In this document: positions 1,140 through 14,838 of the stretch, piece after piece
Layout: each line of letters opens with the position of its first letter
How positions within the stretch are numbered: position 1 is the stretch's first letter
Origin: Rhodopseudomonas palustris
GTDB lineage: Bacteria; Pseudomonadota; Alphaproteobacteria; Rhizobiales; Xanthobacteraceae
NCBI GenBank assembly: GCA_016215605.1
Contig: JACRJB010000037.1
Coordinates: 1-64,000 of the forward strand
Direction of reading: 5' to 3'
DNA length: 64,000 nucleotides
The notes under the pieces: model-generated
The model's input: the letters and a program-made list of their open reading frames with translations, nothing else
What the model was told of the DNA's origin: nothing
Database searches by the model: none
Translations under genes and position numbers: made by a program

Positions 1140-1511
1140 TCATTCCGGCTTGAAGGTGCCATCGTCCAGAAAGGAGAGGCACATGCCGGCGTCGCCGGCT
1201 TGCGGAAACCACTTGGTAGCCGCGATCGCTTCGAGTTGCTGGCGCGCCTCAGTCGGCGCGACCGCGAGCGTCAGCTTGGCAGCCTGAAGCCGCACCTGCA
1301 TGTTGGGATACTCAAAGAGGCTCAACAGGGCAACCCGCTGATCGCCTTCGCGCCCCTTCAGTTCGTTCGAAATCTCTCGCATGACGTCGAACAAGCGCTT
1401 GAATCTCGCTCGTCGACTTCCGAGCAGGGCCTCGTCCTGTCCGACCGCGACTCTCGCAAACAGCGCCACAAGATCGGGCGTCGCCATTTGGCGAAGATCC
1501 TGTTTGCTCAT
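1140..1511 (-). CDS. DUF2019 protein, third copy of a tandem array (putative immunity protein)
   Basis: A 123-aa, helix-rich, single-domain protein of the DUF2019 type. It aligns end to end with the genes at 1650-2021 and 2182-2553 and shares the pattern MATPDLVALFARVAVGQDEA, LKGREGDQR, the YPNMQVRLQAA helix and the WFPQAGDAGM tail. It is the most diverged of the three. The biochemical role of the family is not established as far as I know. Here it lies downstream of an HNH-type toxin remnant (2550-2890), an arrangement that fits an immunity role (inference). The start at Met 1511 matches the N-terminus of its paralogs; Met 1529 is a possible alternative. Confidence 0.75.
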   Translation of the reverse strand: MSKQDLRQMATPDLVALFARVAVGQDEALLGSRRARFKRLFDVMREISNELKGREGDQRVALLSLFEYPNMQVRLQAAKLTLAVAPTEARQQLEAIAATKWFPQAGDAGMCLSFLDDGTFKPE

Positions 1512-1540
1512 GGTTGCATGACTTCGCATTTTCGCAGGCC

Positions 1541-1580
1541 CGTAGGGTGGGTTAGATTAGCACGCAGCGTGGTACCCACC
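1541..1580. repeat. Short palindromic intergenic repeat
   Basis: A REP-like sequence, gtagggtgggttag...cgcagcgtggtacccacc, whose two ends are complementary. It separates the first DUF2019 gene from the second. A related end (cctaacccaccgtaagg) occurs at 4627-4643. Confidence 0.5.
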
Positions 1581-1649
1581 GACTCGCCCCCGCGAGCGCG
1601 ATCGCGACGAATTTCAATCGCACTCCCCCCAAGCGCTCCGCACGTCCGG

Positions 1650-2021
1650 CTAAGTCGGTTTGAACGTACCATCGTCGAGCAAGTCGAGCGACATCCCCGC
1701 CTCTCCAGCTTGAGGAAACCACTGCGAGGCCGCAATCTCCTCAATTTGCCGCCGTGCTGCAAGCGGCGCGACCGCCAGCGTGTGCTTGGCTGCTTTCAAC
1801 CGCACCTGAATATTCGGATAGCTGAACAGCGCCAGCAGCGCCCGCCGCTGGTCGCCGTCGCGGCGCTTGAGCTCCTGCGACACATCGGCCATCTTTCTGA
1901 ACAGCCGATTGAACTCCTTGAACCTGAACCCCAGCAGCGCCTCGTCTTGCGCCACGCCGATCGCCGCGAAGCGCTGCACCAGCTCGTCGGTGGACATGGC
2001 TTCAAGGTCGATCTCTTTCAC
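1650..2021 (-). CDS. DUF2019 protein, second copy of a tandem array (putative immunity protein)
   Basis: A 123-aa DUF2019 protein. It is nearly collinear with the gene at 2182-2553: both begin with the eight codons for MK-x-IDLEAM, then STDELVQRF, and both end in DDGTFKPT or its equivalent. The start codon is GTG at 2021, with GGAGAGG 5 bases upstream. The high similarity to the 2182 copy suggests a recent tandem duplication. No catalytic motif is visible. As part of an array behind a toxin remnant, it may bind a nuclease toxin (inference). Confidence 0.78.
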   Translation of the reverse strand: MKEIDLEAMSTDELVQRFAAIGVAQDEALLGFRFKEFNRLFRKMADVSQELKRRDGDQRRALLALFSYPNIQVRLKAAKHTLAVAPLAARRQIEEIAASQWFPQAGEAGMSLDLLDDGTFKPT

Positions 2022-2181
2022 CGGCCTCTCCGTGAGGATGGACGGCCCGCGCCTGCCGTCTCATCCCCGACAAAGGATCTGCTCGATCGCTCGACGCGAA
2101 ACGTGGGTGCCCTCGTCGCGCGATGCCAACGGCCACCGAACTCCGGCTACCTTGGGCTCTCGATCTCGCTGAATCAATCTC

Positions 2182-2553
2182 CTACGTCGGTTTGAAAATG
2201 CCGTTGTCCAGGTTGACGAGTGACATGCCTGCATCGCCGGCCTGCGGATACCATTGCGACGCGGCGATCTCTTCGATTTGGCGACGAGCCTCGACGGGTG
2301 CGACCGCCAGCGCATGTATCGCCGCCTTCAAACGCACTTGCATGTTGGGATAGCTGAACAGCGCCAGCAGCGCGCGTCGCTGATCGCCCTCTCGCCTCTT
2401 CAGCTCCTGCGATACTTCCGCCATCTTATCGAAAAGCCGGTTGAACTCCCGGAGCCGGCCGCCCAACAGCGCATGATCCTGCGCCACGCCGATCTCGGCG
2501 AAGCGCTGCACCAGCTCGTCGGTGGACATGGCTTCAAGGTCGATCGTCTTCAT
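2182..2553 (-). CDS. DUF2019 protein, first copy of a tandem array (putative cognate immunity protein)
   Basis: A 123-aa DUF2019 protein. Its ATG at 2553 overlaps the stop of the upstream toxin reading frame by four bases (ATGA, 2550-2553), the classic layout of a translationally coupled toxin-immunity pair. The protein is a run of predicted amphipathic helices with conserved LKRREGDQRRALLALFSYPN and QWYPQAGDAGM segments. It would be the direct partner of the degraded toxin, and the two copies downstream would be duplicates. DUF membership is from recognition; the immunity role is inferred from gene order only. Confidence 0.8.
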   Translation of the reverse strand: MKTIDLEAMSTDELVQRFAEIGVAQDHALLGGRLREFNRLFDKMAEVSQELKRREGDQRRALLALFSYPNMQVRLKAAIHALAVAPVEARRQIEEIAASQWYPQAGDAGMSLVNLDNGIFKPT

Positions 2554-2994: not shown

Positions 2995-3220
2995 TCAGCT
3001 CACCGCGAACTTCAGCAGCTTGATCGCGTCGAAATCCCGGACGCCGCCGCCGACGCGCTTGGTGGTGTGAAACAACACTTAGGGTTTTGCGGAATAAGGA
3101 TCGCGCAGCACACGGACGCTCTGGCGATCGACGATCAGATTAGCCGCGGCGGAAATCACCGAACGCAATCGCTGATCGAATTCGCCGCGACATCGGCATA
3201 TCCCCGACGTCGGCGCGTGA
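2995..3220 (-). pseudogene. Degenerate copy of the major capsid gene 3' end
   Basis: Bases 2995-3170 align without large gaps to 4672-4849, the 3' end of the intact capsid gene. Weaker similarity continues to about 3220. The translation keeps LIVDRQSVRVLRDPYSAKP, but the next codon is TAA where the intact gene has TAC, so this copy is broken. Together the two copies form direct repeats around the phosphoribosyltransferase-SLOG cassette. This copy is more decayed and is followed by the terminator, so it may be the remnant of the original gene end. Confidence 0.85.
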
Positions 3221-3339: not shown

Positions 3340-3939
3340 ATGCAGGTATCGGTTCGGCGTTTGATGGGTAACTGGGATGTGGGCTACGCCCTACACACCC
3401 ACGTAATTTCCAGCGTCTACCTTGGACGAGACGAACACGGACGCGACCGGTTCGACAACACGAGATCGGAGCCGGGCGAGGCCTTATTCCAGCTCAAATA
3501 CCGATCCGATTGGGCACAAGTGCAACCGCTAGCCGAACAAGTTCGAGTGTCCCTGCTTCCACTATTCCCCGACGTCGGCCTGATCGTTCCGATGCCCGCG
3601 TCCGTGGCGCGACCGCGGCAACCCGTGACGGAGATCGCTCGGGAACTCGGGCGATTGGCGAATATTCCCGTCTTCGAGACGATTGTGACCAAAGCGTCTG
3701 CTCCCGTGGGCGCTCCGCAGCTCAAGAATTTGACCACGAAAGAAGAGAAAGCGGCTGCCCTCGTTGGCCGTTTCACGGTAAAAGATGTGATCGGGGGAGA
3801 CGGCAAATGGAACGCACTGCTGCTCGACGATCTGTTCGATACTGGCGCCTCGATGGAGGCCGTCTGCGACGCGCTGCGGACCTATCCCAAAATCGGAGGA
3901 ATCTACGTCGGCGCAATCACACAGGGACGTAACTCGTGA
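3340..3939 (+). CDS. ComF-like phosphoribosyltransferase (PRTase), first gene of a PRTase-SLOG cassette
   Basis: A protein of about 199 aa with a type I PRTase core. The PRPP-binding loop reads LLLDDLFDTGAS at about residues 162-173, and an upstream strand-loop GLIVPMPASVARPRQPVTEI resembles ComF/amidophosphoribosyltransferase-like proteins. No Cys-rich zinc finger of canonical ComF is present. Its stop overlaps the GTG start of the SLOG gene (GTGA, 3936-3939), so the two are translationally coupled. The frame is open for over 1 kb upstream; Met 3340 is chosen because recognisable protein begins there (MQVSVRRLMGNWDVGYAL), with Met 3364 as an alternative. Codon use is less GC-biased than in the neighbouring capsid gene. 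The substrate is unknown; PRTases paired with SLOG proteins are predicted to act in nucleotide-based conflict or signalling systems. Confidence 0.75.
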   Translation: MQVSVRRLMGNWDVGYALHTHVISSVYLGRDEHGRDRFDNTRSEPGEALFQLKYRSDWAQVQPLAEQVRVSLLPLFPDVGLIVPMPASVARPRQPVTEIARELGRLANIPVFETIVTKASAPVGAPQLKNLTTKEEKAAALVGRFTVKDVIGGDGKWNALLLDDLFDTGASMEAVCDALRTYPKIGGIYVGAITQGRNS

Positions 3940-4493
3940 CCACGGTCTTCATCGCAGGTTCGATTTCGATTAGCCGCCTCGACGCCAAGGTCAAACAGCG
4001 CATCGCGACCATCGCGGCATCCGACCTCGACGTCGTGGTCGGCGACGCGGATGGTGCCGATACGTCGATTCAGAGTTGTCTTGCTGAGCATGGCGCGCAG
4101 CGTGTGACGGTGTATTGCAGCGGAGATCAACCACGCAACAATCTCGGCGGATGGGTGGTGAGATCCGTGCATCCAACGGCGGCGCCGGGCAGTCGCGCGT
4201 TCTTCACCGCGAAAGATTTGGAAATGGCTCGTGTCAGTGACGTCGGCTTGATGATCTGGGACAGCAAGAGTACCGGGACGCTGAGCAACGTCATCGAACT
4301 CCTCGATCGCGGCAAGAAGTCCGTGGTGTTCGTCAACAAGATGAAGGATTTCGTGACCGTCGGCGATGTCGCGGGATTGGAACTTCTGCTGACGAAGATG
4401 TCGAATCAAGCGCGCGCCAAGGCCGAGGACAAGGTCGGACTCGACGCGCGATTGCAGGATCTGTCGCAGAAGCAACTTTCGTTGGCGATCTGA
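3936..4493 (+). CDS. SLOG-family (YspA/DprA-LOG-like) nucleotide-binding protein, partner of the PRTase
   Basis: A 185-aa Rossmann-type protein. It starts FIAGSISISRL, then has VVVGDADGADTSIQ at residues 33-46, the Gly-rich x-G-x-x-x-G-A-D signature of SLOG/DUF2493-type proteins that bind nucleotides or their derivatives. A later segment, VGLMIWDSKSTGTLSNV (about residues 105-121), matches the second conserved strand-loop with the G-T-x-x-N/M sequence. The C-terminal ~45 residues are helical and charged. The GTG start overlaps the PRTase stop. Known SLOG proteins include LOG phosphoribohydrolases and sensor domains of defence systems; which activity this one has cannot be told from sequence. 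Confidence 0.78.
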   Translation: MTTVFIAGSISISRLDAKVKQRIATIAASDLDVVVGDADGADTSIQSCLAEHGAQRVTVYCSGDQPRNNLGGWVVRSVHPTAAPGSRAFFTAKDLEMARVSDVGLMIWDSKSTGTLSNVIELLDRGKKSVVFVNKMKDFVTVGDVAGLELLLTKMSNQARAKAEDKVGLDARLQDLSQKQLSLAI

Positions 4494-4534
4494 TCAATTC
4501 GAGCGAGTGGCCCAGCCCATGGCCTGCCATGAGC

Positions 4535-4645
4535 GCAGCACTATGCGGAAGGATGAGTCCCGGATGGCGCTTCGCTTATCCGAGCTACGAGGTAGCCCGC
4601 GCCACGGTGGATTACGGCACTGTGCGCCTAACCCACCGTAAGGAT
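4535..4645. repeat. REP-like palindromic sequence
   Basis: A stretch reading ggatgagtcccggatggcgcttcgcttatccgagctacgaggt and ending in cctaacccaccgtaagg. It resembles dispersed palindromic repeats of this bacterial group. It lies between the SLOG gene and the end of the intact capsid gene, and no gene is supported here. Confidence 0.45.
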
Positions 4646-4671
4646 GCTGTGCCCGATGCGCGGCCGTGCTT

Positions 4672-4849
4672 TCAGCTCACCGCGAACTTCAGCAGCTTGA
4701 TCGCGTCGAAGTCCTGGACGCCGCCGCCGACGCGCTTGGTGGTGTAGAACAGCACGTAGGGCTTGGCCGAATACGGATCGCGCAGCACCCGAACGCCCTG
4801 GCGGTCGACGATCAGATAACCGCGGCGGAAATCGCCGAACGCGATCGAC
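4672..4849. repeat. Direct repeat, right copy (capsid 3' end)
   Basis: This right copy matches 2995-3170. The two copies bracket about 1.5 kb that contains only the PRTase-SLOG operon and a REP-like sequence. This copy is intact and forms the last ~58 codons of the working capsid gene. Confidence 0.85.
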
Positions 4850-5928
4850 AGCGAGCTCGCGGTGATGTCGGGCATGTCTTCCGCCTCGACCAGCGGAAAC
4901 GTCATCAGCGAGGCGCGGCCGCCCGCCTGCGCCGGCGGCTGCCACAGATAGCTGCCCGACGTGTCCTTGAATTTGCGGATCGCCGCCTGGGTCTTGCGGT
5001 TCATCACGAAGGCGCCGTTCTGGCGATAGCCGGCCTTGAGCGCGTAGATCAGGTCGACCAGAACGTCGGACGGATTGCTCGCCGGGAACGCGCCGGCGGT
5101 GCCGGTCGCGATGTAGCCGAGATTGCCCCAGCTCCACGAGCCGTTCGCGACCGCCGTTGCGGCGAGGAAGCCCTTCGGCTTGTTGACGCCGTCGCCGCTG
5201 ACGAACGCCGCACCCTCTTGCACCGCGAAGGTGAGTTCGACCTCGGACGCGATCCACTCGTCGATGTTCACCGCGCTGTCGTCGAGCAGTGTCGCGGTCG
5301 CCGCCGGCATCGCATACAGCTCCATCGCCGGAAACGACAACGCATCGAGCGTCGGCGAATTCGTCTGCGTGCGCGCATCGGTCTCGCCCACCCAGCCGGT
5401 GGCCGGCCCGGTGGTCATGAACGGCTTCTTGTAGATCGAGCCGGAGATTTCCCGCACCGAGGCGATCGCGCGGATCGGCGAGATCGCCGTGAGCCGCTGC
5501 GCGATCGCATGCTCGAGTTCGACCGGGACGAGATAACCGCCGTCCGGATTGGAGCCGATCGACATCGCCTTGGTCTCGATCGCGCGCAGCGGCGCGGCGT
5601 CGCCGCAGCGAACATAGGCCTCGAACGCGCTCTTGTGCTCGCGACTGCCGGCGAAGCTCTCGGCGCGGCGCCCGTCGAGCTGCGGCCGCGCCTGCTTCAG
5701 CGCGTAGTCCTCGATCCGTTTCAGCCGCAGATCGATCGCGTCGGAGATGCGGTCGACCTTCTCCTCCAGCAGCACGTCGCCGCGGCGGCGCTCGAGCGCG
5801 GCGAGGCGCTCGTCGTTGGCGGCCTTGAACTCGTCGTGCGTCCGCATCAGCTCGTCATGGGCGTCGCGCTCGGCGGACGCGAAGCCGGCCTTGGTCTCCG
5901 GCGCAGAGGTGTCGATGTCGTAGTCCAT
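4672..5928 (-). CDS. HK97-family phage/GTA major capsid protein
   Basis: A 418-aa major capsid protein of the HK97 fold family (phage_capsid). The N-terminal ~110 residues are a charged coiled-coil delta-domain (DAHDELMRTHDEFKAANDER, RLAALERRRGD) that the prohead protease would remove. The mature part starts near residue 120 and has the usual GGYLVPVELEHAI, PFMTTGPATGWVGE and DPYSAKPYVLFYTTKR segments. Start at 5928: AGGAGAA 4 bases upstream. It belongs with the protease (9430), portal (10681) and terminase (12583) on the same strand, the order of HK97-like phages and RcGTA orfg2-g5. It is separated from the protease by 3.5 kb of toxin/immunity genes. No head-tail adaptor gene follows. Confidence 0.92.
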   Translation of the reverse strand: MDYDIDTSAPETKAGFASAERDAHDELMRTHDEFKAANDERLAALERRRGDVLLEEKVDRISDAIDLRLKRIEDYALKQARPQLDGRRAESFAGSREHKSAFEAYVRCGDAAPLRAIETKAMSIGSNPDGGYLVPVELEHAIAQRLTAISPIRAIASVREISGSIYKKPFMTTGPATGWVGETDARTQTNSPTLDALSFPAMELYAMPAATATLLDDSAVNIDEWIASEVELTFAVQEGAAFVSGDGVNKPKGFLAATAVANGSWSWGNLGYIATGTAGAFPASNPSDVLVDLIYALKAGYRQNGAFVMNRKTQAAIRKFKDTSGSYLWQPPAQAGGRASLMTFPLVEAEDMPDITASSLSIAFGDFRRGYLIVDRQGVRVLRDPYSAKPYVLFYTTKRVGGGVQDFDAIKLLKFAVS

Positions 5929-6049
5929 GGGGTTCTCCTGGTGGGCGTTGAGTTGATATGTGCGCAGACGCAAACGCCGCGGCAGGAGGCCACGGCGGCA
6001 AGGTTGAGATCGAAGAATGCTTGTGCGGACCGCAATCCCGCCGCGGGCT

Positions 6050-6679
6050 TCAGCCGATCGCGATATCGACCTGATCGGGCTCGACAGCATGGTCGCACCA
6101 GATCCGAAGACGGATCTCCGTTTCCCGCACGAGGCGCGTCGCCAGCGTGCGATAATCCGGCGTGACAACGTCGAGCCTGCGGCTCGGCGTCGCGATCAGG
6201 CCGTCGAACAGCGGCCGGTCCGCATCGGCGCGGTCGTCGGCATCAAGCAGCCTCAGACAGGTCGTGCCATCCATGCCGGAACGACAACCGATGCTGACCC
6301 CAGCGGTCGAGGCGAACACGACCTTGCCGCGCTCCGCACGCGGCGGCTCGAACGTGTCCCGATCGCCGGTGACCAGAACGACCGCACTCGGCCGCGGCAG
6401 CCCCTCGCCCGCGAAGCCGTTCTTCCGGCGCAGCTCGAACACGTAGCCGGCCTGGATGCGCTGGCAGGTCAGGCAATGCGGGAAGATTCTCTGCGGCTTG
6501 CCTGAATGGTTCACGGCTGTCGGAGGTTGAAGATCGCCGATCCAGTTGCCCGAGCGCGTTTCGGGATCGCGGCGCCCACAGGTGTGGCAACCGGACGTCG
6601 CGCCGATACGGTTGATCGCCGCCACTTCATCCGCCGCAAAGACGTAAGCGTCATCGAACGCATTGTGCAGGACGATCAT
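6050..6679 (-). CDS. In-frame fusion of an inactivated HNH toxin domain to its immunity protein
   Basis: A 209-aa protein. Residues ~25-85 match the C-terminal HNH domain of the toxin at 8227-9141: C31-H-T-C34, SGNW, then D49-L50 where the other toxin has D-H, then C69-L-T-C72. The likely catalytic His is therefore replaced by Leu. Residues ~100-209 match the immunity protein at 7862-8230 along its length (IGCRSGMDGTT; ATPSRRLDV; RIWCDHAVEPDQ). The overlapping stop/start seen between toxin and immunity gene at 8227-8230 is missing here, so the two run as one frame. Start at 6679: GCGGGGA is 3-4 bases upstream. The toxin N-terminal part is absent. It may be a neutralised relic kept for immunity; function inferred. 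Confidence 0.75.
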   Translation of the reverse strand: MIVLHNAFDDAYVFAADEVAAINRIGATSGCHTCGRRDPETRSGNWIGDLQPPTAVNHSGKPQRIFPHCLTCQRIQAGYVFELRRKNGFAGEGLPRPSAVVLVTGDRDTFEPPRAERGKVVFASTAGVSIGCRSGMDGTTCLRLLDADDRADADRPLFDGLIATPSRRLDVVTPDYRTLATRLVRETEIRLRIWCDHAVEPDQVDIAIG

Positions 6680-6738
6680 CGTTCCCCGCAAACACTCATC
6701 GCAACGGTCGATCAGCCGGTGTCTGCCGGTCGCACCGT

Positions 6739-7185
6739 TCAGCCCGGCCTTCGCATCAGCCGCCGCACCTTTGCGGCCATCTCTTCGTTGTATTCGTCGA
6801 TCGTCGTCCCGAACCGCACCTGCCGCAGATGCTGCGGCAACAGATCGTGCTGCAGCCGATCGATGATGCGGTCGTGAGATATTTCGACCATCATGTCGCG
6901 CCAATCCCATGTGCGCTCCCCTTCCGGGGCGGCCACCTGGACTTCAATCGACCAGTCGCGATACTCGGCGAGCAACGTCTGCAACGCAGAAAGCATCTCC
7001 GGCCGCAACAATTGCATATCGTACATGATGATGGACTGAGAATAACAGTCCGGACTACGTTTCGAAGAAATCCAGACCGCGCGAGCCGCCTCCGCGAACT
7101 TGCAGACATAATTGTCGACCACCTGCACTATTTCATGGTGCAAAAGCCGCCATTCCCGTTTGTGGCCAGCCGCGTCGCCGCTCAT
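6739..7185 (-). CDS. Putative orphan immunity protein, paralog of the 7358 gene
   Basis: A 148-aa acidic/hydrophobic small protein. The region from MQLLRPEMLSALQTLLAEYR to DLLPQHLRQVRFG aligns with the protein at 7358-7759 (LLDPPVIYALRDLLQEYP ... SFLPPPYRNLHYLG), sharing the L-x-P-x-x-x-x-A-L-x-x-L-L-x-E-Y pattern and a W-x-x-M/G-x-x-x-x x I-I-D-x-L stretch. I recognise no family. It lies in one minus-strand series with the toxin and immunity genes, which suggests an accessory or orphan immunity role (inference). GGGCGGGA precedes the ATG at 7185. The gene ends about 60 bp before the toxin-immunity fusion begins. Confidence 0.6.
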   Translation of the reverse strand: MSGDAAGHKREWRLLHHEIVQVVDNYVCKFAEAARAVWISSKRSPDCYSQSIIMYDMQLLRPEMLSALQTLLAEYRDWSIEVQVAAPEGERTWDWRDMMVEISHDRIIDRLQHDLLPQHLRQVRFGTTIDEYNEEMAAKVRRLMRRPG

Positions 7186-7186
7186 C

Positions 7187-7332
7187 TCATTCCCGCCCGA
7201 GCCGCACCCTCGCGATGAACCTTAGCATCCGCATCGCGCGGTTGAAATCGCGGATCCGGTCGATCAGCGCGTCAGTGCCGACCGCTCACGCCGCTGGTTG
7301 GCTTCGCTGGCACCATCGAGCAACGCCTTCAC
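7187..7332 (-). pseudogene. Possible short broken gene between two immunity-like genes
   Basis: Minus-strand codons from GTG 7332 give VKALLDGASEANQRRERSAL and then a stop. A one-base shift at that point continues as LIDRIRDFNRAMRMLRFIAR and ends just before the ATG at 7185. The join reads like a single amphipathic helical protein with one frameshift. Identity and reality are both uncertain. Confidence 0.25.
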
Positions 7333-7357
7333 GTCTCACAACACCTCGCGGACGCAG

Positions 7358-7759
7358 CTATTCCGGACGCGATCCGAGGTAGTGCAAATTTCGATAAGGC
7401 GGCGGTAGAAAGGAGCGCTTCAGCCCGTCGATAATCTCGCCTTGAAACAGCGAGATGCCCATTCCGGGCCACTTGGCGCCATCAGGCGGCACCACCGACA
7501 CGGTAATGGCGAAGCCCGGATACTCTTGCAGCAAGTCGCGCAGGGCGTAGATCACCGGGGGATCGAGCAGGTCGAGGGTCATGATTTCGACTTGCACGAG
7601 CGCGACACCGATGTCCTCGTCGACGACCCAGAAATCCCTTTTCCCGAAAGGATCGATAATCTTACCCATGCTTTCGAAGTGAGCGATGATACGCTCGCGC
7701 AGCGCCGTCCAAAGCGGAACGAATTCTTCGCGACTGAAACGGATCCTGGAATTTGTCAC
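7358..7759 (-). CDS. Putative immunity protein, paralog of the 6739 gene
   Basis: A 133-aa soluble protein with alternating acidic and hydrophobic segments (ALVQVEIMTLDLLDPP; EYPGFAITVSVVPPDG). It is homologous along its C-terminal ~90 residues to the protein at 6739-7185. The start is GTG at 7759 with GCGGAGG six bases upstream, a strong ribosome binding site. It follows the immunity gene of the HNH toxin by ~100 bp on the same strand. The family is unknown to me. An immunity or accessory role is inferred only from position and from small size. Confidence 0.65.
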   Translation of the reverse strand: MTNSRIRFSREEFVPLWTALRERIIAHFESMGKIIDPFGKRDFWVVDEDIGVALVQVEIMTLDLLDPPVIYALRDLLQEYPGFAITVSVVPPDGAKWPGMGISLFQGEIIDGLKRSFLPPPYRNLHYLGSRPE

Positions 7760-7861
7760 AATCGCCTCCGCTATGTTCGAGCATAGTATAGCGGATCATC
7801 TGCCTTCGCACCTTCGACCTTGTGCACCGACAAACAAGGACCTTCATCGACTAACTTGGCG

Positions 7862-8230
7862 TCATCCAAACTCCGCCAAGATCTGATCCGGCTCACTCGG
7901 GTGGTTAGTCCAGATGCGCACAGGAGTTACCGCCCCCGCGACAGCAATGCGCAAAAGCACCTCGCGCTCAGAGGTCGATACTTCGATCGAGCCGCTCGGC
8001 GTCGCCATATCGCCAGAGAACGTCGGGACGGAACAAGCAACGTCTTCCGCTGAGTTCGAGGCGGTGAGCTCCGTCTCGCCATCCATAAAACTCAAACAGC
8101 CCACGATGATGCTGCGCTGCGACGCCCAAATTCGCGGCGTCCTCCCGTCGATTTGTGGCAGCGCTCCGCCAGCCGCATCTTCGATGAAGAACATCGAATT
8201 AGGAGGAGCGATTCGGCATGATTGTTTCAT
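7862..8230 (-). CDS. Putative immunity protein of the HNH toxin at 8227-9141
   Basis: A 122-aa protein. Its ATG (8230) overlaps the toxin stop by four bases (ATGA, 8227-8230), so the two are translationally coupled, as in toxin-immunity pairs. The sequence is mainly beta-type, ending VRIWTNHPSEPDQILAEFG. The second half of the fusion protein at 6050-6679 is its paralog, so this toxin domain and this partner occur together twice in the window. The frame is open upstream of Met 8230, but those codons lie inside the toxin gene. The family is not known to me. Confidence 0.75.
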   Translation of the reverse strand: MKQSCRIAPPNSMFFIEDAAGGALPQIDGRTPRIWASQRSIIVGCLSFMDGETELTASNSAEDVACSVPTFSGDMATPSGSIEVSTSEREVLLRIAVAGAVTPVRIWTNHPSEPDQILAEFG

Positions 8231-9141
8231 TGTGATCTCTTTAGCAGCAGCTGTTGCACGTAATATCCTTGCCGCAAGCTGCAACTGAGACATTGCGGAT
8301 AAAGTCGCTGCGCGCGGCCGTCGAAATTAAGACCGTTCGGCTCCTGATGATCGAGGCAAAAATTTCCACTCGCAGTACCGGGCTCCCGTTCACCACATGT
8401 ATGACAACCATACGTATACCCCATACGATTGCCCTCCCGCCGCTCCCAGACGTTAAAATTTCTTCCAGGTCCTCGAGCCGGGATAGACTCTACTACATAC
8501 CGCCCGGGCAGAGCTCCCCATTCTTTGAATTCGGCCATCTTCGCTTCTGCCGCAGCGATTACGCCCCGCTCTGCACTGATCATTCCTTCGACCGAACCAA
8601 TTGAAGAAACTGGCGGCTTCCAGGTTGGATCAACTCTGTTCACCCTGGCGATAGCCATGTCCGCTTGAGCTTCCAATGCTGTAAGGCTAACCGATTGGCC
8701 CAACGACAGTTCGAATTGCTGTCCATTGATGTAAACAGAATTGCCTACCCGACGTCCTCGCAACTGAGCGTATTGCTGCCCCGGCTTAACCGGTTCAGGA
8801 TCCGCATCGGAGATGACCCGCGGATCATTGCGCCCTGACTGAACGATCGGTTTGATGCCCGCTAATCCGACGCCGGTAAGATCGATCTCCCAACGGGAGC
8901 CCAGTCCCCCAAACGTCCACTGCCCGCCGTCCGGATTGCCCTTCGGTACCCGCGGCTGGTTCGGGTTGTACTTGCGATCGAGTGCTGGGAAGACGTCTTG
9001 CGGTCGGGCACCCGGCGCGAGAAATCGCGCGACGTCAGGCCTGATCCAACGCTCGGCGTCCGGACGCATCCAGCGCTCCGCATTTGGTTGCATGAAGCGC
9101 GCGCGCTGATGCGCGGCGGTGCTCGCGGTCGAGCTCCACAT
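8227..9141 (-). CDS. Polymorphic-type toxin with C-terminal HNH nuclease domain, inside the phage/GTA head cluster
   Basis: A 304-aa protein. Residues 17-37 carry three short repeats of the form (M/I)-x-P-(N/D)-A-E-R-W. Residues ~57-77 read KYNPNQPRVPKGNPDGGQWT, a linker-like motif I associate with phage-linked toxins of this bacterial group. The middle has no recognised domain. The C-terminus (244-304) is an HNH-type zinc nuclease: C246-H-T-C249, SGNF, D264-H265, N, and C284-L-S-C287. Start at 9141 with GAGG 8 bases upstream. It sits on the same strand between protease and capsid genes, and its stop overlaps the immunity gene. It lacks a signal peptide and a recognisable PAAR, RHS or MuF domain, so the delivery route is unknown. 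Confidence 0.72.
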   Translation of the reverse strand: MWSSTASTAAHQRARFMQPNAERWMRPDAERWIRPDVARFLAPGARPQDVFPALDRKYNPNQPRVPKGNPDGGQWTFGGLGSRWEIDLTGVGLAGIKPIVQSGRNDPRVISDADPEPVKPGQQYAQLRGRRVGNSVYINGQQFELSLGQSVSLTALEAQADMAIARVNRVDPTWKPPVSSIGSVEGMISAERGVIAAAEAKMAEFKEWGALPGRYVVESIPARGPGRNFNVWERREGNRMGYTYGCHTCGEREPGTASGNFCLDHQEPNGLNFDGRAQRLYPQCLSCSLRQGYYVQQLLLKRSQ

Positions 9142-9194
9142 CGGTTGTGCCTCGGTCGTTGATCAGTGATGTTGAGAAGGCGGCGCGCCGAGCT

Positions 9195-9410
9195 GCTCCC
9201 TCTCCCCGCCCTTCTGCGGGGAGAGGGCTGGGGTGAGGGGCCGGGCACGGCGCAAGCCGAGTACGCGTCGCCTTTGGGCCGGGATGTGCCCGGCACCGAG
9301 CCGACCCGAGCAGTCGTGATCAGCGCGACGCCGTGCCTGGCCCCTCACCCGGCCCGGCTTCGCTCCGCTTCGCCGGGCCGACCTCTCCCCGCGCAGGGCG
9401 GGGAGAGGTG
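9195..9410. repeat. Long palindromic repeat with Pyr-rich arms (family 5)
   Basis: The left arm is gctccctctccccgcccttc tgcggggagaggg. The right arm is ggccgacctctccccgcgcagggcggggagagg. The spacer carries ggggtgaggggc and its partner gcccctcaccc. One half of the same unit recurs at 10158-10207. The repeat fills the gap between toxin gene and prohead protease gene, and no coding sequence is supported there. Confidence 0.65.
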
Positions 9411-9429
9411 AGCGCGCCTTGCCGCGCCC

Positions 9430-10083
9430 TCACCGGCCGCGTCTGATTGCCGCGAAGGCCTGCTTGCGATCGGCGCGGGAGGACAGCGTCAGGGCCGTCC
9501 TCCCGCGCCGCGCGGGCAGCGCCGGTGCATCCGCGGCGCTGGCCGATCCCGTCGGTGCCGCCTGCAGGCTGCGCCAGGCCGCCTCGGCGGCGCGGCGTTG
9601 CAGCGACGGCGGCGGCGTCTGTTTGACCGTCGACACCCGCGCGCCGCTCAGCAGCGGAAAGGTGACGATCGAGATTTCCCAGAGGTCGACCTGATACAGC
9701 CGCCGCACCCGCGTCTTCGGATCGATCTGGCCGCGCACGGTGCGATAGCCGATCGACAGCCCGTCGATCGCGCCCTCGCGCAGCAGCGCCAGCAGTTCAC
9801 GGCCGCGCGCCACGTCGGGGATCAGCCGGCCGCGCGCGCGCAGCCCGCGAAAATCCTCGACCAGATCGAGCCAGATGCCGACCGGCTCGCTCGGGTCGTG
9901 CTGGAACAGCATCGGGATCTTGCGCAGGCCGCGCTGCTTCAGCGTCTGCGTGAACGCGCCCGGCATCACCATGTCGCGCGCCTGGTCGATCTCGCCGAAC
10001 AGGCTGGCATAGCCTTCCACGGTGCCGTCGGCAGCCAGCATCAGCCGCGCCGGCGGCACGGGATCGGACATCGGGGCAAGCAT
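9430..10083 (-). CDS. HK97-type prohead protease (peptidase U35), GTA g4-like
   Basis: A 217-aa protein of the HK97 prohead protease family. The core begins GTVEGYASLFGEIDQARDMV, then has MLFQHDPSEPVGIW with the conserved His, and LSIGYRT with the conserved Ser in the GLSIGY strand. It cleaves the delta-domain of the capsid protein during head maturation. The C-terminal ~60 residues are basic and low-complexity. The start at 10083 is preferred because GAGG lies 6 bases upstream; the frame is open further upstream only through repeat sequence. Its normal neighbour, the capsid gene, is displaced 3.5 kb downstream. Confidence 0.85.
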   Translation of the reverse strand: MLAPMSDPVPPARLMLAADGTVEGYASLFGEIDQARDMVMPGAFTQTLKQRGLRKIPMLFQHDPSEPVGIWLDLVEDFRGLRARGRLIPDVARGRELLALLREGAIDGLSIGYRTVRGQIDPKTRVRRLYQVDLWEISIVTFPLLSGARVSTVKQTPPPSLQRRAAEAAWRSLQAAPTGSASAADAPALPARRGRTALTLSSRADRKQAFAAIRRGR

Positions 10084-10157
10084 CGGCGGCCTCGCGGATG
10101 AAGTGAGGAATGGAAACGGATTTGAGAAAGGGGAGCTGATGAGATCAGCGGAAGCCC

Positions 10158-10207
10158 GCTCCCTCTCCCCGCCCTCCTGCGGGGAGAGGTCAAGACGCCC
10201 CCTCACC
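10158..10207. repeat. Half unit of family-5 repeat
   Basis: This unit reads gctccctctccccgccctcctgcggggagagg, nearly identical to 9194-9228. It lies between the small basic gene and the protease gene of the head cluster. Confidence 0.6.
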
Positions 10208-10226
10208 TGCGCAGGTCGGCAGCTTG

Positions 10227-10412
10227 TTACTTCGCCCGCTTCGCCGCGCGGCGGCGCGGCGGGGTGGCGGCCTTGAGCCGCGGCCGCTTCGCCGGCGGCT
10301 TGCGCTGCGGCGGGCCGAGGTGGCTGAGGAATTCGCGAAACACGCTGGTCGGGTCTTTCGCCGCCTTGGTCTCGGTGCGGATCGCGCTCAGCATCGCGTG
10401 CAAACGGTCCAT
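10227..10412 (-). CDS. Small basic protein of the head-gene cluster
   Basis: A 61-aa protein with a helical N-terminus (MDRLHAMLSAIRTETKAAKD) and a very basic Lys/Arg/Pro tail (KPPAKRPRLKAATPPRRRAA). Start at 10412 has TAGGAGG 5-6 bases upstream. It follows the 72-aa gene by 9 bp, so the two are likely co-translated. RcGTA-like clusters also carry very small genes between portal and protease, but I cannot equate them by sequence. Confidence 0.6.
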   Translation of the reverse strand: MDRLHAMLSAIRTETKAAKDPTSVFREFLSHLGPPQRKPPAKRPRLKAATPPRRRAAKRAK

Positions 10413-10421
10413 GACCGCCTC

Positions 10422-10640
10422 CTAATCGTGATCGTCGTCATGCGCGTCGCGCTCGCGGCGCCGCCGCGCGCGGCGATTGAACAATTCCAGCGCATGGACG
10501 AAATCGTCGAACCGCCGCGACGCCGCCGCCATCTCGCGCAGCGCGACCCACAGCCCGGCGGAGGCCGCGAAGGCCCACAGCAGCAGCGCCAGATGCGCAA
10601 GATCGCCCCGCTCGGTGAAGATCCTGATCAGATCGGACAT
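10422..10640 (-). CDS. Small single-TM protein between portal and protease (GTA g3.5-position)
   Basis: A 72-aa protein with one membrane helix (about residues 15-36, HLALLLWAFAASAGLWVALR) and a charged, Arg/Asp-rich C-terminus. Start at 10640 with GGGAG 8-9 bases upstream. It follows the portal gene by 40 bp in the same direction. Its position is that of orfg3.5 in RcGTA clusters; homology is not claimed. Confidence 0.65.
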   Translation of the reverse strand: MSDLIRIFTERGDLAHLALLLWAFAASAGLWVALREMAAASRRFDDFVHALELFNRRARRRRERDAHDDDHD

Positions 10641-10680
10641 CGGCGCTGCTCCCTTGCGCGTTGCACTGTCGTCATCGCCC

Positions 10681-11853
10681 TCACCCCAGCCGGTCGCCGC
10701 CCTCGAGCGGGGCGTAGCCGACGGCTTCGCGCTTTTCGTTCAGAGTCAGGAACGGCGCGGCGCTGACGCGCTCCCACAGCGCGACGCGGTCGCTCGCCAG
10801 CGCGTCGATGCGGTCGGTGTCGATGACGAGGCGGATGCCGTCGCCGAATTGCGGCGCCAGCCATTGCGCCAGCGCGTTGCCAATCCGGCTCGCCAGCGGC
10901 AGCACGCTCTGGCGCACGAAGGCGCGGTTGGCCTCCTGATAGTTCGCAAAGGTGTTGTCGCCCGGAATGCCGAGCAGCATCGGCGGCACGCCGAAGGCGA
11001 GCGCGATTTCGCGCGCGGCGGCGTGCTTCGCCTCCAGAAAGTCCATGTCCTTGGGCGACAGCGCCATCGGCTTCCAGTCGAGCCCGCCTTCCAGCAGCAG
11101 CGGCCGGCCGGCATTGGCGGCGCCCTCGTAGGTCGTCTCCAGCTCGCGCTTCAGCCGGTCGAACTGATCCTCGCTCAGCACCGCGCCTTCCGGCCCGGCA
11201 TACATCAGCGCGCCGGACGGCCGCGCCGAATTGTCGAGCAGCGCCTTGTTCCAGCGCGCCGCGGCGTTGTGAGTGTCGACCGCGACCGCGGCGGCCTCGA
11301 GCGGCGCCAGGCCGTAGTGATCGTCGAGCGGATGAAAGAACGTCAGATGCAGGATCGGCGGCAGCGGCGCGTGCTGATCGAACCGCACGCAGCGCGCGCC
11401 GACCGCGTAGTCGTAGGCCTCGGCCCAGCCGTCCGGCCCGGGCACCACCTTCATCCGGTCCGGCCGCAGCGCGTAGAGTTCGTGCACCGCGTCGCCGAGC
11501 GCGACGGCTTCGAGATACGCGTTGCCGGCGAGCAGCAGATGCGCCACCAGCGTCTCCAGCAGCGCCGCGCCGTCCTGCCGCGGGTTCGGCCGCGCCAGCA
11601 GCAGCGCCAGCGGATGCGCCTCCTTCTCCTGCGCGCCGTCGAACACCAGAAACGTGCACGCCGCCGCATTCTCGGCGATCAGCCGCACGCAGCGATGCAC
11701 CACGGCGTTGGACAGATAGCCCTGCCGAGCCAGCGCCGCATAGTCCCGCGGCGTCCACCGCGCAACGCCCCCGGATTCGATCGCAAGCAGCCGCGCCGTG
11801 CGCGACGCTTTGACTTCCGGCGGAGCGAGAAAGGCTTTGAGACGATCGAGCAT
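10681..11853 (-). CDS. HK97-family phage/GTA portal protein
   Basis: A 390-aa portal protein, the dodecameric DNA gate of the head. Family features are GYLSNAVVHRCVRLIAENAA near residue 45, HPLALLLARPNPRQDGAALL near residue 80, the NAYLEAVAL strand, YGLAPLEAAA, and GVPPMLLGIPGDNTFANYQE near residue 300. It is of full family length. The start at 11853 is the first Met and matches the family start MLDRLKAFL. It lies downstream of the terminase on the same strand, but a plus-strand GIY-YIG gene with flanking palindromes has come between them. Confidence 0.92.
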   Translation of the reverse strand: MLDRLKAFLAPPEVKASRTARLLAIESGGVARWTPRDYAALARQGYLSNAVVHRCVRLIAENAAACTFLVFDGAQEKEAHPLALLLARPNPRQDGAALLETLVAHLLLAGNAYLEAVALGDAVHELYALRPDRMKVVPGPDGWAEAYDYAVGARCVRFDQHAPLPPILHLTFFHPLDDHYGLAPLEAAAVAVDTHNAAARWNKALLDNSARPSGALMYAGPEGAVLSEDQFDRLKRELETTYEGAANAGRPLLLEGGLDWKPMALSPKDMDFLEAKHAAAREIALAFGVPPMLLGIPGDNTFANYQEANRAFVRQSVLPLASRIGNALAQWLAPQFGDGIRLVIDTDRIDALASDRVALWERVSAAPFLTLNEKREAVGYAPLEGGDRLG

Positions 11854-11889
11854 GTGGGTATCCGTTGATATGGAAAGTACTTTACCAAG

Positions 11890-11945
11890 CCGGCGTGCCC
11901 CGGACGCAGCGCAGCGCGCAGCGGTGCGCTGCAGAGCCGGGGCCG
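11890..11945. repeat. Palindrome flanking the GIY-YIG gene, left
   Basis: gtgccccggacgcagcgcag...ctgcagagccggggcc forms a hairpin. Its reverse complement resembles the element at 12499-12550 (gtcccggttctgcgcagcgg), so the two flank the GIY-YIG gene as an inverted pair. Confidence 0.5.
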
Positions 11946-12070
11946 TTGCGAAAAGGTGCCGAAGTTATTCGATGAAGCGGACGTCCCGCTCGCGACACAG
12001 TCCGGTTCAGCGCAGCGGCTTATCTCGCCGCAGCCCGCGACACCGAGCTCAGACCATGCGAAAGTCGGGC

Positions 12071-12367
12071 ATGGCGCACACTTACTTCGTCTACATTCTG
12101 GCGAACCGGCCCCGCGGCGTCTTGTATGTCGGCGTAACCAACGACGTCGCGCGGCGGCTCGCCGAACATCGAGCGAAGAGCACGCCGAGCTTCACTGCCA
12201 GATATGGCGTCACACGTCTCGTTCATGTCGAAGAATACGCCTCGATCCTCGAAGCCCGCGCGCGCGAGCATTCCCTGAAGCGCTGGCATCGCACGTGGAA
12301 ATTCCAACTGATCGAGGCCACCAATCCCGAATGGCGCGATCTGTCTGCCGATCTCTCGTTGGCGTGA
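12071..12367 (+). CDS. GIY-YIG nuclease family protein (UPF0213/YhbQ-like)
   Basis: A 98-aa protein that is all GIY-YIG domain: FVYILANRPRGVLYVGVTND holds the two core strands (VYI, LYVG) and the following V-T-N-D; ARRLAEHR provides the conserved Arg, and EAREHS-type helix EARAREHSLKRWHR carries the conserved Glu and basic residues. It lies between terminase and portal on the opposite strand, flanked by palindromes (11890-11945, 12499-12550). Small GIY-YIG proteins of this type are widespread; whether this one acts as a homing or DNA-processing nuclease is unknown. Start Met 12071 fits the domain start; Met 12056 is an alternative. Confidence 0.85.
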   Translation: MAHTYFVYILANRPRGVLYVGVTNDVARRLAEHRAKSTPSFTARYGVTRLVHVEEYASILEARAREHSLKRWHRTWKFQLIEATNPEWRDLSADLSLA

Positions 12368-12498
12368 CGGGATCTACTTATGCGGCCGGGTTGCCGCTTG
12401 GCGTACCCTGGACGCAGCCCGGCGTGAAGCGGTGATTGGAGAGCCGTGACCGCCGCGGCGACAATCGTCATGTCGGCGCGGCGATTCATTCCTCGTAA

Positions 12499-12550
12499 CG
12501 GTCCCGGTTCTGCGCAGCGGCACTACGTGCCGCGGCGCGCCCGGGACACG
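12499..12550. repeat. Palindrome flanking the GIY-YIG gene, right
   Basis: acggtcccggttctgcgcag...cgcggcgcgcccgggaca is an imperfect hairpin, related in inverted orientation to 11890-11945. The gap 12368-12582 otherwise holds no gene. Confidence 0.5.
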
Positions 12551-12582
12551 GCATTCATACGCGGTCGTTCACAATCCCATCT

Positions 12583-13956: not shown

Positions 13957-14707
13957 CGCGCGACCTCCTGCGCTGCTCGTCGCTGCGCAGCTGACGAAGC
14001 GCGGCCAGCGTGCGGGCGAGCGACGCCAGCGTGCGGGCGCGCCGCTCGGCCTCGGTGCGTTGCTCGGGTTTGACGCGGTTGCCGCCGACGATCACTTCGA
14101 TCTGCAGGATCTCACGCTCGGCGGCCTGTCCGACGCGATCGATCAGCGGCAGTCCGCTCAGCGGCGGCGGATCGTTGCACCGGTCCACCGCTGTGCGGGT
14201 CACGCCGCTGGGCCCGCGGCGGCGCGGCGTCGAGGGCGACTCGCCGTCGTCGTGATCCGTGATGTCCAGGATGGGCGCGGTCTGTGCGACGGCCGGCTCT
14301 TCGACGGTTTCGGCTACAGTGGCCTTGGCGACAGAGGTCTTTGCTACAGAAGTCTTGGCGATCCTTGGCCGATCCGATTTCGCTGCGCTCGTCTTGGTAG
14401 CTCTCGCCTTGCCGGCGCTCGTCTTCGCGGCAGTCTTCTTCACGGCGGCCTTCTCGACCGTCGAGGTCGCCGCCTCGCGCTTTGCCGGCGGCGGTTTCGC
14501 GGGGCGTTTGGTTGCGGTGCGGCTCAGTATCCGCTGCGCGCGGGCCATGCCGTCCGCGTCGGACGGATCGATCCGGGTGGTCTCGTCGACCTTGCGGGAT
14601 GTCGCCTTGATGGTGGCGAGCCGGCGGCTGGCGGGCCCGTCGCCCGGTGCGCGCACGGCGGCGTGCGCCGCCGGCTTGGTCGCCGGCGTGCGTGAACGAA
14701 TGGCCAT
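13847..14707 (-). CDS. Putative small terminase / GTA g1-like protein with Lys-Ala-rich N-terminus
   Basis: A 286-aa protein. Residues ~60-140 are Ala/Lys/Thr-rich with short repeats (AVKKTAAKTSAGKARATKTS; a TSVAKTSVAKATVAE run), resembling histone-H1-like DNA-binding tails. The C-terminal ~110 residues are helical and charged (EREILQIEVIVGG; ERRARTLASLARTLAALRQLR; DLDELRRALSRRLEQM). It lies directly upstream of the large terminase and overlaps it by 110 bp, the place of a small terminase. In RcGTA-like clusters orfg1 is at this place. Start 14707 with GAGGG 9 bases upstream. Assignment is by position plus the helical DNA-binding-like tail, not by a clear domain. Confidence 0.55.
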   Translation of the reverse strand: MAIRSRTPATKPAAHAAVRAPGDGPASRRLATIKATSRKVDETTRIDPSDADGMARAQRILSRTATKRPAKPPPAKREAATSTVEKAAVKKTAAKTSAGKARATKTSAAKSDRPRIAKTSVAKTSVAKATVAETVEEPAVAQTAPILDITDHDDGESPSTPRRRGPSGVTRTAVDRCNDPPPLSGLPLIDRVGQAAEREILQIEVIVGGNRVKPEQRTEAERRARTLASLARTLAALRQLRSDEQRRRSRDDDAIPRDLDELRRALSRRLEQMVDGRAQLPAAGDE

Positions 14708-14838
14708 GGGGCGATGCCCTCGGGTTCGGGATCGGTTCGCGCGCGGCGGGAATTTAGCCGCCGAACGCGACAGCGGGCCGCGCGGCGCGGAAACTCCGCG
14801 CCGTTCGGCACCGCCGGATCGATGCAGGGCCGGCTGGA

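What the first reader, a model, noticed from the sequence alone, without database searches (positions are those of the whole stretch)
3340..4493. Two-gene PRTase + SLOG cassette inserted at the end of a phage/GTA capsid gene
Seen: a ComF-like PRTase with an intact PRPP loop (LLLDDLFDTGAS) overlaps by GTGA a Rossmann SLOG protein with a GDADGAD nucleotide site. The pair is the only content between two copies of the capsid 3' end. Known: SLOG domains and PRTases occur in predicted nucleotide-signal conflict systems, and LOG proteins release bases from nucleotides. Inference: the pair makes and senses, or destroys, a ribosylated nucleotide, and may be a compact defence or signalling system carried by a mobile cassette. 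I know no described system with just these two proteins.
Basis: partly seen in the sequence, partly recalled or inferred. Interest (0 to 1): 0.78.

Follow-up and report, generated by a model that had tools for sequence, protein, structure and literature searches.

The report
Mobile two-gene toxin–antitoxin-like pair
Two overlapping genes beside a relic phage capsid gene in a Rhodopseudomonas genome form a recurrent mobile pair, found on plasmids, in viral contigs and in bacterial genomes, that most resembles known toxin–antitoxin phage-defence pairs but looks like a separate branch of them.

Summary
A ComF-like phosphoribosyltransferase (PRTase, 3340-3939) overlaps by GTGA a small SLOG protein (3936-4493), and the pair is the only content between the capsid gene's 3' end and a second copy of that end. 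The pair is not unique to this genome. PRTase-seeded scans gave 67 genome and 7 viral loci, and all 74 have the SLOG gene directly behind; a SLOG-seeded viral scan gave 23 of 23 testable strong loci. It also sits on plasmids. All 73 PRTases scanned match the PsyrT model and 67 match ShosT (E <= 0.01), but the window pair fails defining features of both: no helicase, no full DprA, scores far below true members. I call it a new variant: a minimal PRTase toxin with a SLOG antitoxin, the SLOG carrying a C-terminal helix-turn-helix in about a quarter of relatives. In a sister species the same capsid slot holds DarT. Only one of 50,697 phage records gave a (partial) match. Toxicity, neutralisation and phage defence are inferred, not shown.

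The parts
3340..3939 (+). ComF-like phosphoribosyltransferase, 199 aa, inferred toxin/effector; PRPP loop LLLDDLFDTGAS at residues 160-171
   Evidence: Pribosyltran E 0.0012, below the curated cut-off; PsyrT model in 73 of 73 family members at E <= 0.01; profile match to ShosT and to the PsyrT C-terminal domain
3936..4493 (+). Minimal SLOG (Rossmann) protein, 185 aa, inferred antitoxin/sensor; GDADGAD and WDxKSxGTxxN motifs
   Evidence: phrog_289 E 5e-8; profile match to ShosA, prob 87, E 3.9e-6; invariant positions
3936..3939 (+). GTGA overlap of PRTase stop and SLOG start
   Evidence: overlapping or within 10 nt in 69 of 70 loci measured, one at 43 nt
4672..5931 (-). HK97-type major capsid gene, intact 3' end at 4672
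   Evidence: (Phage_capsid 2e-89)
2995..3171 (-). Second copy of the capsid 3' end (displaced fragment, 89.8% over 177 nt; weaker to about 3202)
4494..4671 (.). Spacer between the SLOG stop and the capsid stop, part of the inserted segment
   Evidence: the segment from capsid end through the cassette into the fragment is collinear with G011 and G005 at about 81%
1140..2553 (-). Three DUF2019 genes (1140-1529, 1650-2021, 2182-2553) beyond the fragment, part of the same accessory region

Best explanation
The pair is a mobile toxin–antitoxin module of abortive-infection/addiction type. The PRTase is the toxin; by analogy with RqlH/PsyrT it acts through its PRPP site, using PRPP to modify or deplete a nucleotide or nucleic-acid target. 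The downstream SLOG protein is the antitoxin. It holds the PRTase in check, probably by direct binding, and releases it when its nucleotide pocket or a partner senses infection or DNA stress; falling SLOG levels after plasmid loss would release it too. In many relatives, mostly Alphaproteobacteria, the SLOG carries a C-terminal helix-turn-helix that would autoregulate the operon. In this genome the pair entered a relic phage head cluster at the capsid 3' end, bringing a new copy of that end and displacing the old one. Shown here: constant pairing from the PRTase side, co-divergence, purifying selection, invariant sites, homology of the PRTase to PsyrT and ShosT and of the SLOG to ShosA, decay seen only in the PRTase, mobile and some defence contexts. 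Supported but not proved: the displaced-end reading of the capsid site. Inferred: toxicity, neutralisation, trigger and target.
For: Pairing: SLOG follows the PRTase in 67 of 67 genome loci and 7 of 7 viral loci, in 6 of 6 plasmid loci opened of 61 plasmid records hit, and in 7 of 7 family PRTases in 397 genomes of the order. From the SLOG side, 24 strong viral loci: 23 have the PRTase directly upstream (22 full, 1 partial) and the last is cut by its contig end. Co-divergence: Mantel r 0.69, p <= 0.0002, 51 of 67 loci after dereplication. Kinship: PADLOC PsyrT in 73 of 73 PRTases (best 8.9e-18), ShosT in 67 of 73 (best 5.6e-11), at E <= 0.01; profile comparison PRTase–ShosT prob 95.6, PRTase–PsyrT C-terminus prob 96.1, SLOG–ShosA prob 87.2; mismatched controls prob 0.06-0.17. 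[quoted passage not shown] Decay: PRTase broken or truncated in 5 of 74 loci, SLOG in 0 of 74; in G355 the PRTase match has an internal stop and the SLOG match none. Antitoxin features: SLOG of 270 aa or more in 20 of 74 loci, HTH_37 in 21 of 80 SLOG proteins scanned and an addiction-module-antidote domain in 1 of 80; several plasmid relatives are annotated 'addiction module antidote protein'. Context: near ParA/ParB or RepA genes on plasmids, directly behind a SIR2 gene with HNH and nucleotidyltransferase genes before it, HamB model in 2-3 of 116 first neighbours scanned; DarT in the same capsid slot in G001.
Against: No toxicity or defence test exists for this family that I know of. The window SLOG has no HTH, no full DprA and no PADLOC family at E <= 1. 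Among 80 SLOG proteins the ShosA (3) and PsyrA (2) model matches are weak and outnumbered by equally weak matches to other models (HEase 12, PDC-M38B 7), so only the profile comparison carries the SLOG–ShosA link; SLOG versus PsyrA is not significant (prob 1.1). SLOG occurs without a family PRTase in 4 of 11 SLOG-positive genomes of the order, and 95 plasmid records match the SLOG against 61 for the PRTase (not resolved locus by locus), so the SLOG has other settings too. The 5-to-0 decay ratio is small and the losses may not all be independent. Only 1 of 50,697 phage records matches the PRTase, partially at 30%. In the SLOG-seeded viral scan three further weak matches had no PRTase. No structure could be obtained. 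I did not count how many of the 116 neighbours match any defence model; no defence family in the shown list was in more than 3.
Confidence: 0.62

Rival explanations
1. Nucleotide-signalling pair: the PRTase makes a ribosylated nucleotide and the SLOG protein senses or destroys it.
For: Intact PRPP loop and invariant SLOG pocket; SLOG domains sense cADPR variants or cleave N-glycosidic bonds in other systems (passages).
Against: In the related RqlHI system the DprA-like partner restrains the PRTase-bearing protein, and the PRTase domain itself is toxic (passages). Among first neighbours no third effector gene is common (the commonest Pfam family is in 5 of 116), so a signal would have no obvious receptor other than the SLOG itself.
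Confidence: 0.18
2. Counter-defence or metabolic accessory of mobile elements: the pair remodels nucleotide pools for the element and is not toxic.
For: In a viral contig the pair lies before genes that I read by eye as terminase genes, and Terminase_2 is in 2 of 116 first neighbours; 38 of 61 plasmid records hit are typed conjugative.
Against: Decay seen only in the PRTase, with the SLOG kept; the antitoxin-type HTH in some relatives; the slot is shared with DarT in a sister species.
Confidence: 0.12
3. Competence (DNA-uptake) accessory, ComF plus a DprA-like protein.
For: ComF-like PRTase; the SLOG is distantly DprA-like.
Against: The ComF zinc finger is absent (0-2 Cys in the first 60 residues of 67 rows), while HpComFC carries a 4-Cys finger (passages). 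The own genome has another PRTase-type match, and the pair is patchy: 7 of 397 genomes of the order.
Confidence: 0.04

Closest known systems
ShosTA (and the P2-hotspot DprA–PRTase anti-phage system)
   Same: Two adjacent genes, a PRTase toxin and a DprA/SLOG antitoxin; the P2 version is phage-carried; both halves detectably homologous.
   Different: Three true ShosT score 155-158 bits on the model against 13.8 for the window PRTase. ShosA is a DprA-like protein of about 280-330 aa and lies upstream of ShosT in 3 of 3 loci; here the SLOG is 185 aa, downstream, and the window copy has no ShosA match.
PsyrTA / RqlHI
   Same: Gene order (PRTase-bearing gene first, partner behind: passages and three loci) and PRTase homology (73 of 73 match the PsyrT model).
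   Different: No RecQ helicase is fused here; the partner is less than half the size (185 against 425-455 aa in three loci) and shows no significant profile match to PsyrA.
Type III-A retron PRTase effector
   Same: PRTase as effector; two PRTase_III-A models each match 1 of 73 relatives weakly.
   Different: No reverse transcriptase is commonly beside the pair (RVT_1 in 2 of 116 first neighbours); ncRNAs were not searched; the partner is a SLOG, not a winged-helix protein.
ComF/ComFC competence PRTase
   Same: PRPP loop and PRTase core.
   Different: No zinc finger; family PRTases score at least 142 bits on the family profile against at most 66 for other PRTases in the same 397 genomes.

Membership tests
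ShosTA | PRTase matches the ShosT model at the level of true members | tested here: not met
   13.8 bits, E 0.0099 against 155-158 bits for three true ShosT; distant homology only
ShosTA | Partner is a full DprA-like ShosA | tested here: not met
   No PADLOC hit for the window SLOG at E <= 1; ShosA in 3 of 80 relatives, best 5.7e-4; profile match over 108 columns
ShosTA | Gene order: DprA gene upstream of PRTase gene (as in the three loci read here) | tested here: not met
   PRTase (or its remnant) first in 74 of 74 loci; ShosA first in 3 of 3
ShosTA | PRTase toxic, partner neutralises, phage defence | not testable with these tools
   needs bench work
PsyrTA / RqlHI | RecQ-like helicase fused to a C-terminal PRTase domain | tested here: not met
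   Window PRTase is 199 aa; the PsyrT match covers model positions 574-672 of 689 only
PsyrTA / RqlHI | PRTase domain homologous to the PsyrT C-terminus | tested here: met
   prob 96.1, E 3e-9; 73 of 73 relatives at E <= 0.01
PsyrTA / RqlHI | Partner homologous to PsyrA/RqlI | tested here: inconclusive
   Profile comparison with three PsyrA not significant (prob 1.1, E 0.047), though the register looks sensible; PsyrA model in 2 of 80, best 0.0019
Type II toxin–antitoxin module (general) | Small two-gene operon, overlapping or closely spaced, constant partner | tested here: met
   SLOG behind PRTase in 74 of 74 loci; 69 of 70 overlapping or within 10 nt; SLOG without PRTase in 4 of 11 genomes
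Type II toxin–antitoxin module (general) | Antitoxin carries a DNA-binding domain | tested here: inconclusive
   SLOG of 270 aa or more in 20 of 74 loci, HTH_37 in 21 of 80; the window copy has none
Type II toxin–antitoxin module (general) | Toxicity neutralised by direct binding | not testable with these tools
   needs bench work
Type III-A retron | Reverse transcriptase and ncRNA adjacent | tested here: inconclusive
   No RT among the window ORFs given to Pfam, but not every ORF was scanned and ncRNA was not searched; RVT_1 in 2 of 116 neighbours of relatives
ComF (competence) | N-terminal 4-Cys zinc finger | tested here: not met
   0-2 Cys in the first 60 residues of 67 rows; finger described for HpComFC (passages)
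LOG phosphoribohydrolase | PGGxGTxxE catalytic motif (recalled) | tested here: not met
   S112, G114, T115 and N118 invariant in 72 of 72: no PGG, and Asn in place of Glu; the LOG motif is from memory

The most novel reading that the evidence does not exclude
A ligand-gated minimal toxin–antitoxin class: a stand-alone PRTase toxin whose antitoxin is a bare SLOG domain. Its invariant nucleotide pocket is itself the infection or stress sensor, a nucleotide or PRPP-derived ligand replacing the DNA sensing proposed for DprA-type partners, so that toxin product and antitoxin ligand form a closed loop. The class would be spread by mobile elements across Proteobacteria and be missed by defence annotation. 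In Rhodopseudomonas it would be loaded at a capsid-3'-end slot that swaps such cassettes.
Probability: 0.28. Interest if true: 0.72.

Novelty: new variant of a known kind. Interest (0 to 1): 0.52.

Why it matters
In the passages I read, PRTase toxins (RqlH, ShosT, retron III-A effectors) have no established chemistry. This family is the smallest version seen here, one 190-200 aa enzyme with one partner that can be as short as 185 aa, so target and off-switch can be tested directly. It recurs on plasmids (61 records, 38 typed conjugative, 21 from Klebsiella) and is annotated mostly as 'ComF family protein' beside a hypothetical protein, XRE regulator or addiction antidote; the 2023 PADLOC library has no model that I would expect to call it. 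The capsid-3'-end slot, holding DarT in one species and this pair in others, suggests that relic phage head clusters act as exchange sites for toxin–antitoxin or defence cassettes.

Tried and rejected
Rejected: the standard ComF reading (no zinc finger; another PRTase-type match in the genome). Rejected: degraded LOG enzyme (invariant pocket, no LOG motif). Rejected: 'found only here'. Rejected: filing as ShosTA or PsyrTA (defining features tested and not met).

Led nowhere: searching solved structures with both profiles gave no useful relative. A tblastn of the phage collection gave one partial hit in a record without annotation, which I did not open. The promoter/terminator scan found nothing above shuffles. 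HicB_lk_antitox gave no match at the HicB-like ORF that I read by eye in G010. The DefensePredictor paper names a PRTase in a figure legend on validated systems (passages), but the system's other parts are not given in what I saw, so I cannot say whether it is this family. The paper that defined PsyrTA (PMC3644417) is not held. The first ShosTA search matched unrelated words and was repeated as a whole word. A paper search on Rhodopseudomonas gene transfer agents, capsid and toxin was used as a listing only. Before, 18 of 134 first-neighbour proteins were left out as near-duplicates by eye, and the 129 second neighbours were not scanned. Loci were fetched but not used.

Full report
WHAT IS THERE. 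The window lies in a Rhodopseudomonas genome: it is contig C18 of a 5.79 Mb assembly, and four same-genus contigs holding the pair or its remnant have the same lengths as contigs titled Rhodopseudomonas. At 3340-3939 lies a 199-aa PRTase and at 3936-4493 a 185-aa SLOG-type protein, overlapping by GTGA. The PRTase matches Pfam Pribosyltran only weakly (E 0.0012, below the curated cut-off) and the SLOG matches no Pfam family at E <= 1; the SLOG matches phrog_289 at 5e-8. The pair lies between the 3' end of the HK97 capsid gene (4672) and a second copy of that 3' end (2995-3171, 177 nt, 89.8%).

THE PAIR IS RECURRENT. A profile of 11 PRTases found 67 loci in species-level genomes and 7 in viral contigs. 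A SLOG reading frame follows the PRTase or its remnant in all 74; the two genes overlap or lie within 10 nt in 69 of 70 loci where the spacing was measured, the other being 43 nt. In the plasmid collection 61 records match the PRTase (56 over at least 80% of it), 38 of the 61 typed conjugative and 21 from Klebsiella; I opened six and all six have the SLOG gene next. The SLOG alone matches 95 plasmid records, so some plasmids may carry it without the PRTase; I did not resolve this. A search with the Klebsiella pair, sensitive only to near relatives, found it in 5 of 5426 complete E. coli genomes, all on plasmids. Among 50,697 phage records only one matched the PRTase, partially at 30%. In 397 genomes of the order, 7 hold a family PRTase (at least 142 bits; the next best PRTase scores 66) and all 7 have the SLOG beside it, while 11 hold the SLOG, 4 of them without a family PRTase. 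Starting from the SLOG in viral contigs, 24 of 27 loci match strongly: 23 have the PRTase directly upstream (one partial) and the last is cut by its contig end. The three weak SLOG matches have no PRTase. Distances within the two families rise together (Mantel r 0.69, 51 loci kept of 67, p <= 0.0002). Host relatedness contributes to that figure, so it supports but does not prove partnership.

ACTIVE SITES AND SELECTION. In 68 PRTases D163, D164, G169 and A170 of the PRPP loop never change. In 72 SLOG proteins G8, S9, G36, D37, A38, G40, D42, Q46, R67, N69, W73, K93, D94, W108, D109, S112, G114, T115 and N118 never change. Among the Rhodopseudomonas copies dN/dS is 0.13-0.19 for the PRTase (four copies) and 0.10-0.24 for the SLOG (five copies). 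The PRTase is broken or truncated in 5 of 74 loci and the SLOG in none, although the loci were chosen by PRTase pattern, which should favour intact PRTases. L147 in that count is the G004 place where only a PRTase remnant accompanies an intact SLOG. In G355, outside that count, the PRTase match holds an internal stop and the SLOG match none.

KINSHIP. PADLOC's PsyrT model matches 73 of 73 PRTases (best 8.9e-18) and ShosT 67 of 73 (best 5.6e-11) at E <= 0.01. I fetched three true ShosTA loci (ShosA 311-326 bits, ShosT 155-158) and PsyrT loci from a phylum search (7 of 150 genomes at E <= 1e-180); of these I used five PsyrT C-termini and the three partner genes that read through as complete ORFs in the right place. 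Profile comparisons: PRTase–ShosT prob 95.6, E 1e-8; PRTase–PsyrT C-terminus prob 96.1, E 3e-9; SLOG–ShosA prob 87.2, E 4e-6 over 108 columns; SLOG–PsyrA prob 1.1, E 0.047, not significant. Mismatched controls gave prob 0.06-0.17. Direct model scans of 80 SLOG proteins gave only weak matches, ShosA 3 and PsyrA 2, fewer than equally weak matches to other models such as HEase 12 and PDC-M38B 7. So the PRTase half is securely related to known PRTase toxins, and the SLOG half is distantly related to ShosA. Neither half is a family member by model score: the window PRTase scores 13.8 bits on ShosT.

WHAT IS KNOWN OF SUCH PAIRS. Passages of PMC9122126 describe a DprA–PRTase pair in P2-like phages that protects against T7 and lambda, and name shosTA, syrTA and rqlHI as toxin–antitoxin systems with DprA-like antitoxins. 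[quoted passage not shown] A passage of PMC11878078 gives the same toxin and antitoxin roles for ShosTA. I found no paper describing this minimal pair in the listings of searches and the passages I opened from them; these cover only the open-licence library. A PRTase named in a figure legend of PMC13092281 (passages) could be related; I could not tell.

ANTITOXIN FEATURES. In 20 of 74 loci the SLOG protein is 270 aa or longer. Pfam HTH_37 matches 21 of 80 SLOG proteins, and one matches a 'probable addiction module antidote' domain. Annotators named several plasmid relatives 'addiction module antidote protein'. The window SLOG lacks the extension.

CONTEXT. On plasmids the pair lies near partition or replication genes, in Sinorhizobium directly behind a SIR2 gene preceded by HNH and nucleotidyltransferase genes, and in a viral contig before genes that I read by eye as terminases. 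Of 116 first-neighbour proteins scanned (of 134), ResIII, Helicase_C and HTH_17 were the most frequent Pfam families in the shown list (5 each); HamB models matched 2-3, RVT_1 2, Phage_integrase 4, Resolvase 2 and Terminase_2 2. I did not count how many match any defence model. In L105 the neighbouring helicase scores best against DpdF models.

THE CAPSID SLOT. All 16 Rhodopseudomonas genomes hold the capsid; by tblastn 7 of 16 have one or more extra capsid 3' ends nearby (in two others, G015 and G006, the capsid lies at a contig end, so its downstream side is unseen). By blastn of each genome's own 3' end, 6 of 14 loci examined have a copy starting more than 600 bp away. G007 lacks the cassette: there the match to the window's fragment runs about 55 nt past the capsid stop, against about 12 nt for the match to the window's intact end. 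This suggests that the cassette came with a fresh capsid 3' end and displaced the old one. The segment is collinear in G011 and G005 (about 81%), so it is old in this group. In G004 and G006 the SLOG lies farther from the capsid, beyond a DUF2019 gene (G006 on a separate contig). In G001 the same slot, between capsid and 3' copy, holds DarT (PF14487, E 6.8e-59 at 533301-533942) with a macro-domain protein that I read by eye as DarG-like. A homology-driven displacement at the capsid 3' end is my inference.

VERDICT. A new variant of the PRTase + SLOG/DprA toxin–antitoxin kind, minimal and mobile. The toxin–antitoxin reading is a homology and genome-context inference (0.62).

Noticed in passing
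L043 (G001) 9250-10970: A DarT gene (PF14487, E 6.8e-59) with a macro-domain, DarG-like neighbour (by eye) lies between the capsid gene and its 3' copy, the same slot as the PRTase–SLOG pair in the window.
   Followed up: partly
window 1140-2553: Three tandem DUF2019 genes. In the genus 9 of 16 genomes have DUF2019, 11 matches: 10 within a few kb of the capsid on the same contig and one (G006) on the contig that holds the cassette, as if DUF2019 were an accessory or immunity gene of the head cluster.
   Followed up: partly
window 4672-13956: A phage head cluster (terminase, portal, protease, capsid), with the capsid present in all 16 Rhodopseudomonas genomes and accessory ORFs between the head genes; no tail genes noticed, not searched.
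   Followed up: partly
window 8227-9141 and 6050-6910: The ORF 8227-9141 has a YNPNQPRVPKGNPDGGQW-type N-terminal part that recurs among the head genes in 9 of 15 sister genomes, and a Cys-rich C-terminal part that ORF 6050-6910 shares. It looks like a polymorphic toxin-like array by eye; no Pfam match for 8227-9141.
   Followed up: no
L044 (G010) 9815-11207: Two successive copies of the capsid 3' end, with a HicB-like ORF (read by eye, no PF15919 match there) between capsid and first copy and a DEAD-type helicase (by eye) beyond.
   Followed up: partly
L043 (G001) 11459-15823: A 1454-aa NACHT/STAND-like NTPase (by eye) directly beyond the second capsid 3' copy, possibly another defence gene in the region.
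   Followed up: no
L164, L165, L166, L167: SLOG relatives without a family PRTase in 4 of 11 SLOG-positive genomes of the order; at least two (L164, L166) carry, by eye, a C-terminal addiction-antidote-like HTH, possibly solitary antitoxins.
   Followed up: partly
L059 (Sinorhizobium meliloti plasmid pMl2) 806-6435: The pair sits directly behind a nucleotidyltransferase, HNH endonuclease and SIR2 run that resembles a CBASS-type island (annotation only).
   Followed up: no
G000:C56:90506-90991: A DarT match with an in-frame stop elsewhere in the window's own genome.
   Followed up: no
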